Numbered from the stretch's first letter, positions 56,569 to 64,000 are shown. The stretch is 64,000 nucleotides of DNA from Sulfurimonas sp. C5 (GCF_029872055.1 NZ_JARXNQ010000002.1:124001-188000), one strand, 5' to 3'. Notes: generated by a model not told the origin, from the letters alone. A program made the numbers and translations.

Positions 56569-57309
56569 ATGAAAATCTTAATTACTGGAGCAAGTTCAGG
56601 TTTAGGTGCTGAACTTGCACGTCAGTATGCTTCACAAGAAAACGAACTGATTCTCTTAGCACGAAGAGAAGAAAAACTGCAACAACTCCAACAAGAATTA
56701 CTTCCTCTGTGTAAAAATATCAAACTTATTATTGTCGATGTAACACACTTTAAAGAGTTACAAGAGCAATTACGTATTATAACTGCTGTAGATATGGTAA
56801 TTTTAAATGCAGGTATCTCTTTAGGACATTCTCACACGCAAACACCAACAATTGATGAGTTTAAAAATCTTTATGATGTGAATGTCTTGGCTAATCATGC
56901 AATTTTGGAAGTGTTATTACCTATTTTTACACAGCAGAAGAGTGGAAAAATTGTTTTTATCTCTTCACTGGCATCTTTATTCTCTATGCCTAGTTCTAAA
57001 GTGTATTCATCATCTAAAAGAGCTTTAAATGCATATGCTGAGGGTCTACGCTACAAGTATGCACCGCTTGGAATTAAAGTAATCAACATATTACCCGGAT
57101 TTATTAAAAGTGAATTAACTGATAAAAATGATTTTCATATGCCGTTTTTACTTGAAACGAAAGAGGGAGTTGCTCGGATAAAAAAAGCGATAGATAAAAA
57201 TAAAACAGAGTATGCTTTTCCTCGTAGATTTTATTTTTTTATCCGCTTTTTAAATCTATTACCTTTGTTTTTGAGTCAAAAGATTGTAAATTCTTTTAAC
57301 GAGAGATAG
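56569..57309 (+). CDS. Short-chain dehydrogenase/reductase
   Basis: A 246-residue SDR: TGASSGLGAELARQY near residue 6, VILNAGISLGHSH near 80, catalytic YSSSKRALNAYAEGL near 145 and an IKVINILPGFIKSELTDKND-type C-terminal half. The basic, hydrophobic tail (FYFFIRFLNLLPLFLSQKI) might associate with the membrane, as in YqjQ/DltE-like members. Only seven bases after hom but with no metabolic link evident. Convergent with a DsrE-like gene, overlapping by 14 bp. Confidence 0.85.
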   Translation: MKILITGASSGLGAELARQYASQENELILLARREEKLQQLQQELLPLCKNIKLIIVDVTHFKELQEQLRIITAVDMVILNAGISLGHSHTQTPTIDEFKNLYDVNVLANHAILEVLLPIFTQQKSGKIVFISSLASLFSMPSSKVYSSSKRALNAYAEGLRYKYAPLGIKVINILPGFIKSELTDKNDFHMPFLLETKEGVARIKKAIDKNKTEYAFPRRFYFFIRFLNLLPLFLSQKIVNSFNER

Positions 57310-57766
57310 GTACATAAGCGTACCCATCGCTTTGTTTATCGATAAGCCCTATAGTGGAATTAGGAACAAATTGAACAAATTCATATAGATCTTTCTTGTC
57401 AAGTTTATTTGCTTTACGTCCCACTTCACACATAAAAAAATCTACACCGTACGTATCTGTTAAAGAGATTAATCTTTTAGCATATTCTTTTTGTTTTGTT
57501 AAAAGAGCTGTATTTTTTTTATAAAGTGTATTAGGCAGATTCTTCACAAAAAATTTGTAAGCGTCTCCATGGATAACTACAGCAACTTCTAGTTCCTGTA
57601 GTTTGCCTTCATAATGGTTTTTTTGGTGTACTATACCAGAGAGAATTTTTTTCTCAAAAGTTTTTAAATCCCCGCTTGTAAAATCGAATACAACTTTTTT
57701 TGTTGCTTCATCAGCAAGCAAAGATGTAACAAATAAGAATAATAAAACAACAAACTTTTTCATCAT
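57296..57766 (-). CDS. Exported DsrE-family protein (sox-region copy 1)
   Basis: A 156-residue protein with a signal peptide (KKFVVLLFLFVTSLLADE) and a DsrE/DsrF-like fold: VVFDFTSGDLKTFEKKI near residue 26, ELEVAVVIHGDAYKFFVKN near 60, and a single conserved cysteine in GVDFFMCEVGRKANKLDKKD near 112. Cytoplasmic DsrE proteins carry sulfur on such a cysteine; these exported forms are poorly known. Last gene of the leftward sox-side run, 5 bp after the DUF302 gene. Periplasmic sulfur binding is inference. Confidence 0.72.
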   Translation of the reverse strand: MMKKFVVLLFLFVTSLLADEATKKVVFDFTSGDLKTFEKKILSGIVHQKNHYEGKLQELEVAVVIHGDAYKFFVKNLPNTLYKKNTALLTKQKEYAKRLISLTDTYGVDFFMCEVGRKANKLDKKDLYEFVQFVPNSTIGLIDKQSDGYAYVPISR

Positions 57767-57771
57767 TGATC

Positions 57772-58689
57772 CTATTCAGTGATGTTCTTAAGGATTTGCT
57801 CAAAATCGTTTTGTGCTTTCATTAGCTCTTTATGCGCTGCATCGTCTGTAACGTGTGCACTGCTTAGCCAGTTGTAAACAGCAGGGAATCCCATAACGAT
57901 TTTATCGTCACCTTTTTTCTTGTATAACATGGTTGTACAAGGAGCAAAGGCTGCAGCTTCTGGACGTGTTTTTGCAACAGTGTAAATTACCGGAAGTTTA
58001 CAGATCGAATAAGACTCGTAAAAATCAAATGGACTCTCTTTCTCTTCATCTAAAACACCAAGTTCATAATCAAGTGTCGCAGGCATAATAAAACCTTTTG
58101 GCGCAAAATTACTTTCTAAAGACATTTTGATCTCTTCTTTTGCATCGTCAAAATCTTCCGGATCATCAAGTTCATATTCATAGGCACTTACAAGATTTCT
58201 GCTCTCTTTTAGAGAATCTTCACTTAAAGTCTGTTTCGCATTCGGTAATGCCTCTTTGAGCGCTTTTATAGTTTTTGCTTCAAGAGTTTTTAAAACATCA
58301 TTGTTATCCATACCGATAATTTTTGCCTGCGCATCAGATGTTAATATACTTACATGTAATGTATCTTCATCATTCGCCTGATAGATACCGACACCCATCG
58401 GGATAAATACACCGGCATTTGCATTTATGCGTAATAGTTTATCCGCAAGTTTTGGCTCAACTACTGTCATAAGATTAAAAATCTTAAAGTCACTCTTTTG
58501 AAACTGTTTTTTAAACGGACCTGTCATGTCGTTGTTTAAAGTTACTGTGAAGCCATTTTTGACAAAACTGTTTTCAATTTGTTTAGGAGTAATAGCTCCA
58601 GACTTATTGTCTACACTAAAAAGATGTAGATCACCTTGTGCCATAAGTGTAACTGCTACACTTAACATCAATCCAATTATTTTTTTCAT
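57772..58689 (-). CDS. Exported DUF302-family protein
   Basis: A 305-residue protein with a signal peptide (KKIIGLMLSVAVTLMAQG) and an N-terminal DUF302-like half: FVKNGFTVTLNNDMTGPFKKQF, FKIFNLMTVVEPKLADKLL and AGVFIPMGVGIYQ near residues 85-105. A second, related half follows (IKMSLESNFAPKGFIMPATLDYEL ... SICKLPVIYTVAKTRPEAAAFAPCTTMLYKK), giving two cysteines. DUF302 proteins commonly occur with sulfur and copper genes in sulfur oxidisers; no activity is known. AAGGA precedes the start. A 59-bp gap upstream might hold a promoter. Confidence 0.75.
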   Translation of the reverse strand: MKKIIGLMLSVAVTLMAQGDLHLFSVDNKSGAITPKQIENSFVKNGFTVTLNNDMTGPFKKQFQKSDFKIFNLMTVVEPKLADKLLRINANAGVFIPMGVGIYQANDEDTLHVSILTSDAQAKIIGMDNNDVLKTLEAKTIKALKEALPNAKQTLSEDSLKESRNLVSAYEYELDDPEDFDDAKEEIKMSLESNFAPKGFIMPATLDYELGVLDEEKESPFDFYESYSICKLPVIYTVAKTRPEAAAFAPCTTMLYKKKGDDKIVMGFPAVYNWLSSAHVTDDAAHKELMKAQNDFEQILKNITE

Positions 58690-58748
58690 TGTTTATCCTT
58701 GTAATATTAAGAGCAAGTTTAACAATTGAGTGTAAAATTTATGTAAAA

Positions 58749-59183
58749 TTACGGAACGATATAAATCCATCCCTCTTTGACTCTTTCAGTTATTTCAACA
58801 ATCCCTGCAGTGACAATTTCAACATCATCAATAAGTTCTTCTTTTTTGATATGTTTTGTTCTCATTGTGTTTTCACATGCAACGAATTCAACACCGTATT
58901 GTTGAAGAGCATCAACACGCACGGCAATCTCTTTTTCTTTTTTAAGGAGTGCTCTAATACCGTGATAATACGCAACAATTCGCATATGTACCATTTCCGG
59001 TCCATAAAATTTCAGTACATTGTTTGCACTGCTGAGAACATGTTGAATAGTTTCGTCATCACCGCGATTAATTGAGAAAATTATTTCTCGTGGCTGCACA
59101 AGTGATGGTTTCGGTTCTGCAAATACTGTATCAGCATAACTTAAAACACTGAGTAAAGCAATTAATATAATTTTACGTATCAT
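58749..59183 (-). CDS. Exported DsrE-family protein (sox-region copy 2)
   Basis: A 144-residue protein with a signal peptide (RKIILIALLSVLSYADTVFA) and the same layout as the copy at 57296: IIFSINRGDDETIQHVLSSANNVL-like start, HMRIVAYYHGIRALLKKE near residue 85 and a single cysteine in GVEFVACENTMRTKHIKKEEL near 112. The two share order and cysteine position, so they are paralogues. Its start overlaps the thioredoxin gene stop by 4 bp (ATGA), so both are made together. Confidence 0.75.
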   Translation of the reverse strand: MIRKIILIALLSVLSYADTVFAEPKPSLVQPREIIFSINRGDDETIQHVLSSANNVLKFYGPEMVHMRIVAYYHGIRALLKKEKEIAVRVDALQQYGVEFVACENTMRTKHIKKEELIDDVEIVTAGIVEITERVKEGWIYIVP

Positions 59184-59563
59184 TTTATCCCTTTCGTAAG
59201 ATCTTTAAAGTCTTGGATATTCCATGAACCAGGAATTTTTTTCAGTATCTTTCCATTCTCATCAAGAAAAAAGAATGTAGGCGTGAGCATTATTTGTTCA
59301 TCAAGCGGAAGTTTTTCATTATCCAGGTTAATCTGTGCGGGAATAAATCTCTCCTCCAGCCAACGTGCCATTTCAGGATCTTGAAATACATTTTTTTCCA
59401 TTTTTAAACAGTAGTGGCAAGTATCTCTCATTACATCCAACATTATGGGTTTATTCGTCTTTTTCTGTACCTCTAGTGCATCTGAATAACTAAGCCATTG
59501 AAATGCTTCAAGAGATGCAGTAACAATAGTGAAACAAAACAGAATTCTTATTATTGTTCCCAT
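59180..59563 (-). CDS. Periplasmic thioredoxin-fold protein (SoxW-like)
   Basis: A 127-residue thioredoxin-like protein with a hydrophobic N-terminal signal (IIRILFCFTIVTASLEAF), active site RDTCHYCLKMEKNVF near residue 46, and the cis-proline in MLTPTFFFLDENGK near 93. It resembles SoxW-type proteins that keep SoxYZ or other sox partners reduced. It overlaps the MBL-hydrolase gene by 13 bp and the DsrE gene by 4 bp. The two-cysteine site is intact, so redox activity is expected. Confidence 0.82.
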   Translation of the reverse strand: MGTIIRILFCFTIVTASLEAFQWLSYSDALEVQKKTNKPIMLDVMRDTCHYCLKMEKNVFQDPEMARWLEERFIPAQINLDNEKLPLDEQIMLTPTFFFLDENGKILKKIPGSWNIQDFKDLTKGIK

Positions 59564-60459
59564 TCTAAAGTCCTATAGGCAGTTTCTACATTTTGTTTAT
59601 GTAGTACATCATACATGTGAACATTTTTATACTCTGGCATCAATATAGATGTTGTTGCATCTTCTATATCGATACCGTCCTCGATCGCTTCTAAAACTTT
59701 TTGTTTTAATTCGACTAGATAATTATAGGTAAAATCTATAGAGTGTTTGTTAATGAGAGACCCATGTCCACCTATAATATATTTATAATTGCCTTCTTGG
59801 ATAGATTGTAATGTCTCTATCCATCTATTTATATCACCATCACGTAATGATGGAACTCTGTCATTAAAGACTACGTCTCCTACAAAAATAGCTTTTAGTT
59901 TTGGAATGTAAATTAAAAGATCACTCTTTGTATGAGCTTTTTGATTTACACTGTATATAAAGATTTCTTGATTATCAATCTTAAGTTTTTTTTCTTGATC
60001 AACAAAAATATTGGGAAATTCTTGAGTAGTATTTTCATAGGCTTCAGGTAAAACCATTCTTTGCATTCTAGTTGTTTCCAGTTTTCCTTCTTCTTGGAAT
60101 TTTTTAGAACCTATAATGTCTATACCCAATTTTTTATAATAGCTATTACCTAACCAGTGGTCATCATGTACGTGGGTATTGATTACATAAGCCACCGGAA
60201 GGTTTTTTATCTTTTTGATTAACGAGTGAGCTTCTTTAGCATAATTATAAGTTGGCCCACTGTCAATCACAAGATAATGATTTCCAATTTCTACAAAACA
60301 TGAATTTACCATGTTTCCGTTGTTTTTTGAGTTGATTGCCTGTGGCTCACCAAAAAAGCAGTAGATATTACTACTGACTTTTTTAGCTTGAAGTTTGTAT
60401 TCAAAAGCAAGGAGAGAAGACATGAATAATATACTTAAAACCACAAGCAAGCGCATCAT
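59551..60459 (-). CDS. Exported metallo-beta-lactamase-fold hydrolase (SoxH-like)
   Basis: A 302-residue protein with a signal peptide (RLLVVLSILFMSSLLAFE) and an MBL fold: HYLVIDSGPTYNYAKE near residue 55, metal motif NTHVHDDHWLGN near 95, further ligands at HTKSDLLIYIP and GGHGSLINKH. This family includes SoxH and the zinc hydrolases encoded with quinoprotein systems; many handle glutathione- or sulfur-linked substrates. Nine bases separate it from the porin gene. The exact substrate is unknown. Confidence 0.82.
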   Translation of the reverse strand: MMRLLVVLSILFMSSLLAFEYKLQAKKVSSNIYCFFGEPQAINSKNNGNMVNSCFVEIGNHYLVIDSGPTYNYAKEAHSLIKKIKNLPVAYVINTHVHDDHWLGNSYYKKLGIDIIGSKKFQEEGKLETTRMQRMVLPEAYENTTQEFPNIFVDQEKKLKIDNQEIFIYSVNQKAHTKSDLLIYIPKLKAIFVGDVVFNDRVPSLRDGDINRWIETLQSIQEGNYKYIIGGHGSLINKHSIDFTYNYLVELKQKVLEAIEDGIDIEDATTSILMPEYKNVHMYDVLHKQNVETAYRTLEWEQ

Positions 60460-60468
60460 AAAACCTTT

Positions 60469-61998
60469 TTAAAATAAATAATTTAACTCGAAACGGTATT
60501 CGTTGTAAGAGTCTACATCTTTACCAGCTTTACTTCCGGCAACTCTATTATCAGCACTAACAAGTCCTACACGAAGTTTTGCTGAAAGAGCAGGTGTAAT
60601 TTGTTCTAGTAAATCTACATGAATAATATTACTGTCTGCTTGAACACCTGCTACTTGTTTTTTATCATCAAAGTTTTGCACTGCATAACGTACCATAGCA
60701 GTAAAACCTGGAATCATTTTCGCTTTTCCAAAGTTATATTTTACTTCTGCTGCCATAGTTTTTGTATTTGCATACCAGTTATATTGTGCCATTGCACGAG
60801 TATATCCACCAGTTGGGAATCCACGCCAAGGAGCTACGATATCTGCTGCATCTTCAACTGCAGAGTAAGCAATTTGTGCTTTTAACGGACCATTTGTTAA
60901 TGCTAAACGTGCCATATAAAGTGAACTATCAAGTGATTCAGCTTTTTTATACCCGTCTTGAGCACCATATAAGCCAGCTAGTCCACCTTTAAGACAAGCA
61001 CCACCAATTTTACCGCCGCCGTTATCCATTTGTTTCATATAACGAACACCTGGTGTTAAAGTATAACCACTGCCAAGAGCAATTTTATAATTTAGTTCAC
61101 CTGTAATTGATGAAACAACATCTGGTACTGAACCATATGTTACATCAATTTGAAGATTATTGATAGATTTATTTTGTAAATCTGCAACGATTAGTTTATG
61201 ATCTACACTTTTACCCGCTGCTTGAAAGTTCGCATAGCTTAAACCTTTGTGTATTGCAGAGTCATCATTATTACCCCATGAATCACCAGAAGAGTCTTTA
61301 AAAGTAATTACATCATGGAATTTTGAATGGTCACGAAGTTTTTGTTCCATAAAGTATGCACCACGGATTCTTGTTTGTGGAATCTCTTTAGTTTCAATTA
61401 CAAGACCATCAAATGTATTAGGGATCATTTTTGTATCATTTGATTTTGTTAAGAATGATTCAAAAATTTGACGACCGAATTTTACTGTTGTCTTTGAGAA
61501 ATCATATTGAAGATATGATTGTGCTAAAACAGCCATATAGTAGTCACCGTTATATTTTGCATCGTAACGGCTAATTGTATCTTTACCTGCTTTGATATAA
61601 CCTAAGTCAGCTACGCTTGCACGTAATCCTGAAAATGGGCTTCCTGAATAATACATACCAGCAGTTGCACTAAAACCTTTAAATGGTGCAGTTTTATAAA
61701 TCATGCTACCACCGATACCGAACGCTTTATTATCTTTGTTCCCTGTTCCGGCAATATCATCATTTTTCCAGTCCCACATGAATGAATTCATACGTAAACG
61801 ACCATAAAAAACACCTTCAGTAAAGGCTTTATCTAAACTATCAACACTTTTTGGAAGTACATTGTAAACTTCCATCATGTTTCCTTTTAGAGAACGTTTT
61901 GGTTGTGCATCATCTGCTGAAGCCGTTGTAAGTGTACCACAAGCAAGTAGTGCTGCAGTAGCCGCTGTAGCGAGCTTTACTTTATTCCATTTTTCCAT
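60469..61998 (-). CDS. OprD-like outer-membrane porin in the sox region
   Basis: A 509-residue porin with a signal peptide (LATAATAALLACGTLTTASA), strands with FYGRLRMNSFMWDW near residue 69, KAGKDTISRYD, GRQIFESFLTKSNDTKMIPNTFDG near 175, EQKLRDH, PWRGFPTGGYTRAMAQYNWYANTK near 393, and a C-terminal NYLF ending in Phe. It is a clear paralogue of the mod-operon porin at 2997. AAAGGATG precedes its ATG. Placement after soxB suggests passage of thiosulfate or other sulfur oxyanions across the outer membrane; this is inference. Confidence 0.85.
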   Translation of the reverse strand: MEKWNKVKLATAATAALLACGTLTTASADDAQPKRSLKGNMMEVYNVLPKSVDSLDKAFTEGVFYGRLRMNSFMWDWKNDDIAGTGNKDNKAFGIGGSMIYKTAPFKGFSATAGMYYSGSPFSGLRASVADLGYIKAGKDTISRYDAKYNGDYYMAVLAQSYLQYDFSKTTVKFGRQIFESFLTKSNDTKMIPNTFDGLVIETKEIPQTRIRGAYFMEQKLRDHSKFHDVITFKDSSGDSWGNNDDSAIHKGLSYANFQAAGKSVDHKLIVADLQNKSINNLQIDVTYGSVPDVVSSITGELNYKIALGSGYTLTPGVRYMKQMDNGGGKIGGACLKGGLAGLYGAQDGYKKAESLDSSLYMARLALTNGPLKAQIAYSAVEDAADIVAPWRGFPTGGYTRAMAQYNWYANTKTMAAEVKYNFGKAKMIPGFTAMVRYAVQNFDDKKQVAGVQADSNIIHVDLLEQITPALSAKLRVGLVSADNRVAGSKAGKDVDSYNEYRFELNYLF

Positions 61999-62141: not shown

Positions 62142-63902
62142 CTAACAACCGCGAGAGCCTTTTTCAGGACATCCACACTCATAGTCTACAAGTGTTACAT
62201 TCCCTTTATTGCTTACATTTATTACCTTTTGGCGTTTAATGTAATCTCTGACAATGTCATATACCGGTCTAATCTTATCTTTACGTAGATTTGCACCTGC
62301 ATTTTGCAAGTTACCACCCCAAGAAGAGACCACATACGTTTTGTTTAGATCTATTGGTTTACCTCCTACTTTAAGATTAGATATTCTCTGACCCGCTTTG
62401 TTTGCAACGGCAATACTATATGTTACACCGCCTAAACGACTCATATCCCCACCTTGTTGGTAGAGTGGATTTGCATTAAATACATTATCCGCAATATCTT
62501 CTAATAAAGTAGCGATTTTTGCACCTTTTAACTCAAACGTATAAACGTTCGGGTATGTAATACCACACATCTCATAAACATTTTCCATTAAAACATCTTC
62601 ACCTGCTAAAACGGTAGTACCCCATCTATAGCCAGGAGTAAATGAGATATCACATTTCATTTCATCCATGATCGCATCATTAATGAGTTGATCGAAAGTT
62701 GAGAAGAATGTATCTCTTTTGTAAAGAATATTTTTTGTTTGTCCCAATACTTCGTTAAACTCTGAAGCAAACGGTGCATAAAGTTCATCAATTAACTTAA
62801 CGCCTTGTTCATCAGCAGGAATAAGATTGGAAGCGATAGGAACAAGTTTATACTCGTAATCTTTCACTTTACCGTCTTGAATATCAAGGTCTAAACGTCC
62901 TACATATTTTCCGTGACTTCCTGCAATAACGATAACAGTATTGTTGATTGTAATCGGTTTTGGTGAAGGGTCATGTGTATGTCCGCTTAAGATAAAGTCA
63001 ATACCGTGAACTTTACGAGCTACCTCTTGATCCACGCTGAATCCATCATGTGAAAGTACAACGACACAATCAACTTTATGTTCATTTCTTAATTCATCTA
63101 CATACTCTTGAAGTGTATCTAAACGAAGACCGAAACTCCATCCTTGAGTAAACTCTTTAGGGTTTGCAGTTGAAGTGAACGGGAACGATTGACCAATAAT
63201 ACCGATTTTTGCTCCGCCACGCTCTTCGATTGTGTATGGTTCAAAAATAAGCTCTTCATACTCATCAGAGAACGGATCGTCACCAACAACATTTTGAGAA
63301 ATAAATTTTGCATCAAGTTGTTCGATCAGTTTTCTTACTTGCTCTTTACCGTATGTAAATTCCCAGTGACCAACCATTACGTCAACACCAAGATAATTTT
63401 GCGCTTTAACAATAGCTTCACCGTCAGTTTTAAGTGCTACACCAGTACCTTGCCAAGTATCACCTGAATCAAGGAACAGCACATTTTCAGCACCACGCTC
63501 TGCACGAACACGATCTAAGTAAGTTTTCATATGAGCTACACCACCCATTTTTCCAAACTTTTTCGCTAAAGCTTCAAAATCGATACAAGTATCAAAATAA
63601 GCATCTAAAGAACTTGGCTCAAGTCCGTAATGTTTTGCAAATGCTTCACCACATAAAAATCCAGGAGTCCCTACAAGATTCGGTGCAGAAATTAATGTAG
63701 ACGGCTCTCTCCAGTAAAGTGGTTTTAAGTGGGCATGTAAATCACACATATGTAAAAGTGTTACATTCCCTTTAGCATTAAAGTCATAGATATCTTTAAG
63801 AGATATCTGTGAAACTGCTTTTGGCTTTGCACAACCTGCAACAGCGGCACTTAAACCGAAAATTGCTGCGATGTGCATAAAATCTCTTCTTGAAATATCC
63901 AT
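62142..63902 (-). CDS. soxB: Thiosulfohydrolase SoxB
   Basis: A 586-residue calcineurin-like phosphoesterase-fold enzyme with a twin-arginine signal (ISRRDFMHIAAIFGLSAAVAGC). Dimanganese ligands lie in LLHMCDLHAHLKPLYWREPS near residue 50, FLDSGDTWQG, VGHWEFTYG, LSHDGFS and LSGHTHDPSP near 310, and the SoxB block GGDMSRLGGVTYS near 485 is present. It releases sulfate from the thiosulfate-derived group on SoxYZ. The C terminus is cysteine-rich (ECGCPEKGSRGC), which is odd. It follows soxA by nine bases. Confidence 0.94.
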   Translation of the reverse strand: MDISRRDFMHIAAIFGLSAAVAGCAKPKAVSQISLKDIYDFNAKGNVTLLHMCDLHAHLKPLYWREPSTLISAPNLVGTPGFLCGEAFAKHYGLEPSSLDAYFDTCIDFEALAKKFGKMGGVAHMKTYLDRVRAERGAENVLFLDSGDTWQGTGVALKTDGEAIVKAQNYLGVDVMVGHWEFTYGKEQVRKLIEQLDAKFISQNVVGDDPFSDEYEELIFEPYTIEERGGAKIGIIGQSFPFTSTANPKEFTQGWSFGLRLDTLQEYVDELRNEHKVDCVVVLSHDGFSVDQEVARKVHGIDFILSGHTHDPSPKPITINNTVIVIAGSHGKYVGRLDLDIQDGKVKDYEYKLVPIASNLIPADEQGVKLIDELYAPFASEFNEVLGQTKNILYKRDTFFSTFDQLINDAIMDEMKCDISFTPGYRWGTTVLAGEDVLMENVYEMCGITYPNVYTFELKGAKIATLLEDIADNVFNANPLYQQGGDMSRLGGVTYSIAVANKAGQRISNLKVGGKPIDLNKTYVVSSWGGNLQNAGANLRKDKIRPVYDIVRDYIKRQKVINVSNKGNVTLVDYECGCPEKGSRGC

Positions 63903-63911
63903 TATATTATC

Positions 63912-64000
63912 CTATCTTTTTAGTCCAGGGATTGCTACTTTAGCCCCTTTTGCTTTATCTGTTATATAAACTTCTAAAGCCACCATTTCAGGTGAACCTA
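63912..64000 (-). CDS. soxA: Sulfur-oxidation cytochrome SoxA, C-terminal end (rest outside window)
   Basis: Only the last 29 residues are in the window: SPEMVALEVYITDKAKG followed by a PGLKR ending. This matches the usual SoxA tail (ALExYLxxxxxGxxxxxPGxR), and soxA precedes soxB in the soxXYZAB order. SoxAX is the periplasmic cytochrome that attaches thiosulfate to SoxY. Identity rests on a short segment plus position, so it is less sure than soxB. Confidence 0.72.
   Translation of the reverse strand, partial: GSPEMVALEVYITDKAKGAKVAIPGLKR

What the first reader, a model, noticed from the sequence alone, without database searches (positions are those of the whole stretch)
57296..60459. Periplasmic sulfur-handling module next to soxAB: MBL hydrolase, thioredoxin, two DsrE-like proteins, DUF302
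Five consecutive leftward genes all encode proteins with signal peptides. Three overlap (13 bp and 4 bp). The single conserved cysteine in each DsrE-like protein, the CHYC thioredoxin and the MBL fold together look like a chain for moving, reducing or hydrolysing bound sulfur outside the cytoplasm. DsrE proteins are usually cytoplasmic sulfur carriers, so exported pairs beside sox are unexpected and could be a distinct accessory pathway.
Basis: partly seen in the sequence, partly recalled or inferred. Interest (0 to 1): 0.72.

Follow-up and report, generated by a model that had tools for sequence, protein, structure and literature searches.

The report
Exported DsrE tied to Sox genes
These five genes are the tail end of a known thiosulfate-burning (Sox) gene cluster of sulfur bacteria; most of it is already described, but one exported DsrE-type sulfur-carrier protein occurs in exactly the same Campylobacterota genomes as the key Sox enzyme SoxB, so it may be an overlooked core part of the pathway.

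Summary
In detail: five leftward genes with signal-peptide-like N-termini, 13-bp and 4-bp overlaps, one cysteine in each DsrE-like protein and a CHYC thioredoxin. The reading is only partly right. The block is the 3' end of one Sox cluster, (sensor-RR-HK)-soxXYZAB-porin-soxH-soxW-dsrE-DUF302-dsrE, conserved across the family, and the soxH-soxW-dsrE part is already published for Sulfurovum indicum, where it rises on thiosulfate (PMC10045233). It is not a separate pathway, and the five genes are not one fixed unit: DUF302 follows directly in 31 of 39 relatives, the second DsrE lies nearby in 12.

What appears new is how strictly the first DsrE (58749-59183) tracks SoxB. In 298 Campylobacterota genomes both occur in the same 54, with no exception, in two divergent sox cluster types, with or without soxCD. 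Its cysteine is invariant in 55 of 55 and aligns with that of MTH1491, which lacks the export leader. These two exported proteins are the only DsrE genes found in this genome. I infer that the first is a core periplasmic Sox protein that takes sulfane sulfur off, or passes it between, SoxYZ carriers, with SoxW as reductant. The chemistry is untested.

The parts
58749..59183 (-). DsrE-A: exported DsrE/MTH1491-type protein, 144 aa, Cys103 (codon 58875-58877); the SoxB-linked member
   Evidence: Pfam PF02635; Cys invariant 42/42 and 55/55; aligns to the Cys of MTH1491; same 54 of 298 genomes as SoxB
59180..59563 (-). SoxW-like periplasmic thioredoxin, CHYC (59408-59419), DsbD C-terminal/DsbH-type fold
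   Evidence: Pfam/NCBIfam; CxxC invariant in 29; next to DsrE-A in 28 of 39 loci, not found beside it in most Sulfuricurvum-type clusters
59551..60459 (-). SoxH-like exported metallo-beta-lactamase-fold hydrolase, 302 aa
   Evidence: TIGR04558/TIGR04559 SoxH-related E about 1e-55 but under their cut-offs; H96,H98,D100,H101,H176,D195,H232 invariant in 36; only copy in the genome at E<=0.001
57772..58689 (-). exported DUF302-fold protein, two alpha/beta halves, invariant Cys230 and Cys251
   Evidence: Pfam PF03625; AlphaFold2 mean pLDDT 91 and Foldseek match to DUF302 structures 1q9u, 1j3m; 37 relatives aligned
57296..57766 (-). DsrE-B: second exported DsrE-fold protein, 156 aa, Cys113 (codon 57428-57430)
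   Evidence: Pfam PF02635; AlphaFold2 mean pLDDT 92, Foldseek matches 1l1s, 2pd2, 3pnx, DsrEFH 2hy5, TusBCD 2d1p; also in SoxB-negative genomes
60469..61998 (-). OprD-family outer-membrane porin, between soxB and soxH
   Evidence: PF03573 1.3e-18; same place in most relatives
62142..63902 (-). soxB, thiosulfohydrolase
   Evidence: TIGR04486 810 bits, cut-off 550
63912..64000 (-). 3' end of soxA; soxA, soxZ, soxY, soxX and a sensor/response-regulator/histidine-kinase trio follow outside the window
   Evidence: L004 ORFs, families

Best explanation
The block is the downstream part of the Campylobacterota soxXYZAB cluster, an exported support set for the SoxYZ carrier, and not a separate pathway. 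DsrE-A is most likely a core periplasmic Sox protein: its single Cys takes sulfane sulfur from (or exchanges it with) the SoxYZ swinging-arm cysteine after SoxXA/SoxB have acted, so that over-loaded or stalled SoxYZ is freed and the sulfur is passed on. SoxW, fed by the genome's DsbD, would reduce the resulting persulfides or wrong disulfides, as SoxS/SoxW do in alphaproteobacteria. SoxH is an intact metallohydrolase acting on a carrier-bound or thioester-like intermediate. DUF302 and DsrE-B are looser accessories. Shown: gene order, export-type N-termini, intact catalytic residues, strict DsrE-A/SoxB co-occurrence, and (in a relative) co-expression on thiosulfate. Inferred: persulfide transfer, the partner proteins and its direction.
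For: DsrE-A occurs in the same 54 of 298 Campylobacterota genomes as SoxB (0 discordant, 20 genera in both tallies, 48 of 54 within 10 kb). Within the family no genome of at least 90% completeness is discordant (63 both, 31 neither), and within the own genus it is 18 both, 17 neither. It is found in two sox cluster types (SoxB about 42% identical between them), including b-type clusters that hold soxC, and its distances follow SoxB's (r = 0.88). Cys invariant 55/55 and aligned with MTH1491. These are the only DsrE-family genes found in the genome; DsbD is present. soxH1, soxW and dsrE are 2.17-3.83-fold up on thiosulfate versus S0 in Sulfurovum indicum (PMC10045233). SoxS reduces false mixed disulfides of SoxYZ in alphaproteobacteria (PMC10451225).
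Against: No biochemical or genetic data were found for this DsrE. Co-occurrence with SoxB shows shared need, not sulfur transfer; the genomes are related, so the number of independent events is far below 54, and r = 0.88 partly reflects common descent. Most plasmid-borne sox clusters outside the phylum lack a close DsrE-A, so Sox chemistry as such does not need it. SoxW is not found beside DsrE-A in many clusters that keep it, which weakens a fixed DsrE-SoxW couple. Export was judged by a simple rule only.
Confidence: 0.5

Rival explanations
1. DsrE-A and SoxW do no sulfur relay in the main flux; they only repair or protect SoxYZ (removal of wrong disulfides and stuck polysulfane chains), as SoxS/SoxW do in Paracoccus and Rhodovulum.
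For: Present both with and without soxC in the cluster, so a step common to all Sox variants; CxxC thioredoxin next door in 28 of 39 loci; SoxS precedent (PMC10451225).
Against: A single-Cys DsrE fold is typical of sulfur carriers rather than reductases; DsrE-A persists where the co-encoded SoxW is not found.
Confidence: 0.3
2. DsrE-A hands periplasmic sulfane sulfur to a YeeE/SoxT-type importer, feeding biosynthesis or sulfur sensing in the cytoplasm.
For: In a divergent sox cluster (L075) a DsrE-A homolog is followed by two YeeE/YedE (PF04143) genes; the own genome holds PF04143 genes; SoxT-mediated sulfur import is described (PMC11582611).
Against: PF04143 genes of the own genome are on another contig, far from sox; in the family none were recognised next to DsrE-A (where unmatched neighbours were not all annotated).
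Confidence: 0.1
3. The five genes form a distinct accessory pathway, for example hydrolysis or reduction of polythionates or polysulfides apart from Sox.
For: All five exported; DUF302 beside sox was once proposed for trithionate oxidation (PMC5037610).
Against: DsrE-A was never found without SoxB in the complete genomes sampled; soxH, soxW and dsrE overlap or abut and follow soxB; DUF302 and DsrE-B are often elsewhere.
Confidence: 0.07
4. SoxH is the real workhorse (a SoxB-like hydrolase releasing sulfate) and the DsrE proteins are minor.
For: SoxH was proposed as SoxB substitute in soxCDYZH clusters (PMC9122950; PMC11237559); full metal site here.
Against: SoxB is intact beside it; SoxH was not found in a few clusters that keep DsrE-A (L046, L047, L058).
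Confidence: 0.1

Closest known systems
soxH1-soxW-dsrE segment of the soxXYZAB cluster, Sulfurovum indicum ST-419 (PMC10045233)
   Same: Same order dsrE-soxW-soxH1-(one gene)-soxB-soxA-soxZ-soxY-soxX; induced on thiosulfate
   Different: The passages read report one dsrE there and do not mention DUF302, a second DsrE or a phylum-wide SoxB link; the paper calls DsrE and SoxW thioredoxins
Sulfurovum mangrovi plasmid NZ_CP087125 (L187)
   Same: All five genes in the same order after soxXYZAB, with sensor/RR/HK upstream
   Different: On a plasmid; an extra small ORF before dsrE and an M15 peptidase gene after the block
MTH1491 (PDB 1l1s) and ST0148 (2pd2), DsrE/DsrF-like family
   Same: Closest solved relatives of DsrE-A; aligned conserved Cys in 'V.F.AC.NT'; same fold for DsrE-B by Foldseek
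   Different: No N-terminal export extension; function unknown
DsrEFH / TusBCD cytoplasmic sulfur relay (2hy5, 2d1p)
   Same: DsrE fold; single reactive Cys
   Different: Heterohexamer of three different subunits in the cytoplasm acting with DsrC/TusA/TusE (general knowledge); here two exported single-domain proteins and no other PF02635 gene in the genome
SoxS/SoxW-SoxV of Paracoccus and Rhodovulum
   Same: Periplasmic thioredoxin-type protein encoded with sox
   Different: The one here is of the DsbD-C/DsbH type; no SoxV/CcdA gene seen beside it, a full-length DsbD lies elsewhere
SoxH / 'quinoprotein relay system zinc metallohydrolase' TIGR04558, TIGR04559
   Same: Best NCBIfam matches (E about 1e-55), all metal ligands
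   Different: 186 and 188 bits, under the cut-offs of 300 and 280; encoded with soxXYZAB, not with PQQ enzymes
DUF302 and DsrE genes in Sulfitobacter sox clusters (PMC11034169) and DUF302 between soxA and soxB in Acidithiobacillia (PMC5037610)
   Same: Same domain types beside sox in other classes
   Different: Other positions; the DUF302 protein described is 191 aa, against 305 aa with two halves here

Membership tests
DsrE/DsrF-like family (PF02635) | HMM match over the gathering score | tested here: met
   45.7 and 34.9 bits, cut-off 22.7; 42/42 DsrE-A relatives match
DsrE/DsrF-like family (PF02635) | DsrE fold with conserved Cys | tested here: met
   DsrE-B model mean pLDDT 92, Foldseek to 1l1s/3pnx/2hy5; Cys invariant. 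DsrE-A was not modelled; its fold rests on sequence match to 1l1s
DsrEFH/TusBCD complex | Three paralogous subunits encoded together, cytoplasmic | tested here: not met
   Only two DsrE genes in the genome, both with export-type N-termini, not adjacent to each other
DsrEFH/TusBCD complex | Persulfide transfer by the conserved Cys | not testable with these tools
   Needs biochemistry
Sox system (core: SoxXA, SoxYZ, SoxB) | SoxB over the equivalog cut-off, with soxA, soxZ, soxY, soxX in the same cluster | tested here: met
   TIGR04486 810 bits; soxA/Z/Y/X ORFs in L004 named by sequence motifs and by synteny with the annotated S. mangrovi cluster
Sox system (core: SoxXA, SoxYZ, SoxB) | SoxCD in this genome | not tested
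   No soxCD in this cluster; one SoxY found genome-wide; SoxC itself was not searched for in this genome
SoxH (TIGR04558/04559 relatives) | Score over the curated cut-off | tested here: not met
   186/300 and 188/280 bits; so SoxH-like, not a curated member
SoxH (TIGR04558/04559 relatives) | Complete MBL metal ligands HxHxDH...H...D...H | tested here: met
   Invariant in 36 relatives
SoxW/SoxS periplasmic thioredoxins | Exported thioredoxin fold with CxxC beside sox | tested here: met
SoxW/SoxS periplasmic thioredoxins | Reduces SoxYZ / is reduced by SoxV | not testable with these tools
   No soxV recognised beside it; DsbD elsewhere
DUF302 (PF03625) | HMM and fold match | tested here: met
   35.9 bits, cut-off 23; Foldseek 1q9u E 3e-6

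The most novel reading that the evidence does not exclude
The exported DsrE (58749-59183) is an unrecognised core component of the Sox pathway in Campylobacterota, needed whenever SoxB is used, acting as a second periplasmic sulfane-sulfur carrier beside SoxYZ.
Probability: 0.4. Interest if true: 0.72.

Novelty: new variant of a known kind. Interest (0 to 1): 0.47.

Why it matters
Sox is the main thiosulfate-oxidising route of vent and sediment Campylobacterota, and how sulfane sulfur on SoxYZ is handled when soxCD is not in the cluster is an open question. A single small exported protein that never appears without SoxB, nor SoxB without it, in the 298 sampled genomes is a direct, testable candidate for a missing part, and a useful marker gene. 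It would also show DsrE-type sulfur carriers working outside the cytoplasm.

Tried and rejected
Separate pathway: rejected by synteny and co-occurrence. DsrE-A as a stand-in for SoxCD: rejected as a general rule, because b-type clusters hold soxC and DsrE-A together. DsrE-A and DsrE-B as a functional pair: weakened, DsrE-B lies near DsrE-A in only 12 of 39 loci and occurs in SoxB-negative genomes. Five genes as one operon: undecided; a weak terminator-like site lies at the dsrE-A stop and promoter-like sites in the region are at chance level. Second SoxH/SoxY cluster in this genome: none found, but SoxC was not searched. A search for a close DsrE-A on plasmids found it with soxB outside the phylum only in Indioceanicola profundi. 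Coordinates of the DUF302 model were not available, so whether C230 and C251 are close enough for a disulfide is open. SoxH and SoxW were not searched genome-wide in relatives, only in the neighbourhoods.

Full report
WHAT IS THERE. Pfam names them DsrE, DUF302, DsrE, a DsbH/DsbD-C-type thioredoxin and a metallo-beta-lactamase-fold hydrolase. The hydrolase is closest to the SoxH-related models TIGR04558/TIGR04559 but stays under their cut-offs. Upstream lie an OprD-type porin and soxB (TIGR04486, 810 bits). Only 89 bases of soxA are inside the window; the genome contig continues with soxA, soxZ, soxY, soxX, a histidine kinase, a response regulator and a sensor gene, all on the same strand (families).

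EXPORT AND ACTIVE RESIDUES. No signal-peptide predictor was on hand. By a simple rule almost all orthologs of all five proteins have export-type N-termini, and MTH1491, which lacks such a leader, aligns to DsrE-A only from residue 33. DsrE-A has one Cys (C103), invariant in 42/42 family members and in 55/55 sequences that include the divergent type; it lines up with the Cys of MTH1491. DsrE-B has one Cys (C113), invariant in 19/19. The thioredoxin CxxC is invariant in 29. The hydrolase keeps every metal ligand in 36. The DsrE-B model (mean pLDDT 92) matches MTH1491, other DsrE structures, DsrEFH and TusBCD. DsrE-A and DsrE-B are related by profile comparison.

IT IS PART OF THE SOX CLUSTER. 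In relatives of the same family the order sensor-RR-HK-soxXYZAB-porin-soxH-soxW-dsrE-A-DUF302(-dsrE-B) recurs. Of 39 loci, SoxB was seen upstream in 36 (in the other three the fetched stretch ends before it), SoxH in 36, SoxW in 28, DUF302 directly after DsrE-A in 31, DsrE-B nearby in 12. The same five genes in the same order stand after soxXYZAB on a Sulfurovum mangrovi plasmid. For Sulfurovum indicum the soxH1-soxW-dsrE part was published and is 2.17-3.83-fold higher on thiosulfate than on S0 (PMC10045233).

WHAT LOOKS NEW. In a sample of 298 Campylobacterota genomes, all at least 90% complete, DsrE-A (E <= 1e-15) occurs in 54 and SoxB (E <= 1e-60) in 54, and they are the same 54 (checked by script); 48 of the pairs lie within 10 kb. 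In the family sample no genome of at least 90% completeness is discordant (63 with both, 31 with neither), and in the own genus it is 18 with both and 17 with neither (weak DsrE-B-like hits left out). DsrE-B (15 both, 1 alone, 3 SoxB alone) and sox-type DUF302 (16, 0, 2) are less strict. Fisher values are given but overstate the case, since genomes share ancestry. The link holds in a second, divergent type of sox cluster (SoxB about 42% identical), which also holds soxC. An alphaproteobacterium, Indioceanicola profundi, has a 44% identical exported DsrE and a second DsrE about 5 kb from soxB on a plasmid, whereas other plasmid-borne sox clusters lack a close match.

MECHANISM. Shown: location, residues, synteny, co-occurrence, and induction in a relative. 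Inferred: DsrE-A exchanges sulfane sulfur with SoxYZ at a step common to all Sox variants, since it is kept with or without soxC in the cluster; SoxW and the genome's DsbD supply reducing power; SoxH hydrolyses a bound intermediate. A pure repair role like that of SoxS (PMC10451225) is the nearest rival. Import of sulfur through YeeE-type transporters is a weaker one, suggested by one divergent cluster in which DsrE-A is followed by two PF04143 genes.

NOVELTY. The domains, the cluster and its induction are known. An exported DsrE that is co-extensive with SoxB across a phylum was not found in the papers searched, which cover open-access literature only. I rate it a new variant of a known kind.

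Noticed in passing
L004:3155-6052 (contig positions beyond the window end): A sensor gene (cache-type in the S. mangrovi record), an OmpR-type response regulator and a histidine kinase lie directly upstream of soxX and recur there in most relatives; a likely Sox regulator, unlike SoxR of alphaproteobacteria.
   Followed up: partly
L178 (G324:C1:1762000-1781900): The unit soxH-soxW-soxW-dsrE-DUF302 is repeated three times in tandem behind soxXYZAB in one complete genome, with identical DsrE scores.
   Followed up: no
window 57772-58689: Two invariant cysteines (C230, C251) in the DUF302 protein in 37/37 relatives, at the end of one strand and the start of another in the model; possibly a redox pair or a ligand site.
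   Followed up: partly
L187 (NZ_CP087125.1 294000-310000): A complete Sox cluster with the five-gene tail on a Sulfurovum plasmid, a likely vehicle for transfer.
   Followed up: partly
L166, L167, L169, L170, L172, L173, L176, L179, L183: In b-type sox clusters a MOSC-domain protein (PF03473 for the L075 copy) and a small cysteine-bearing putative lipoprotein are conserved around soxB; role unknown.
   Followed up: no
window 57296-57309: The dsrE-B gene and the convergent short-chain dehydrogenase gene overlap by 14 bp at their 3' ends.
   Followed up: no
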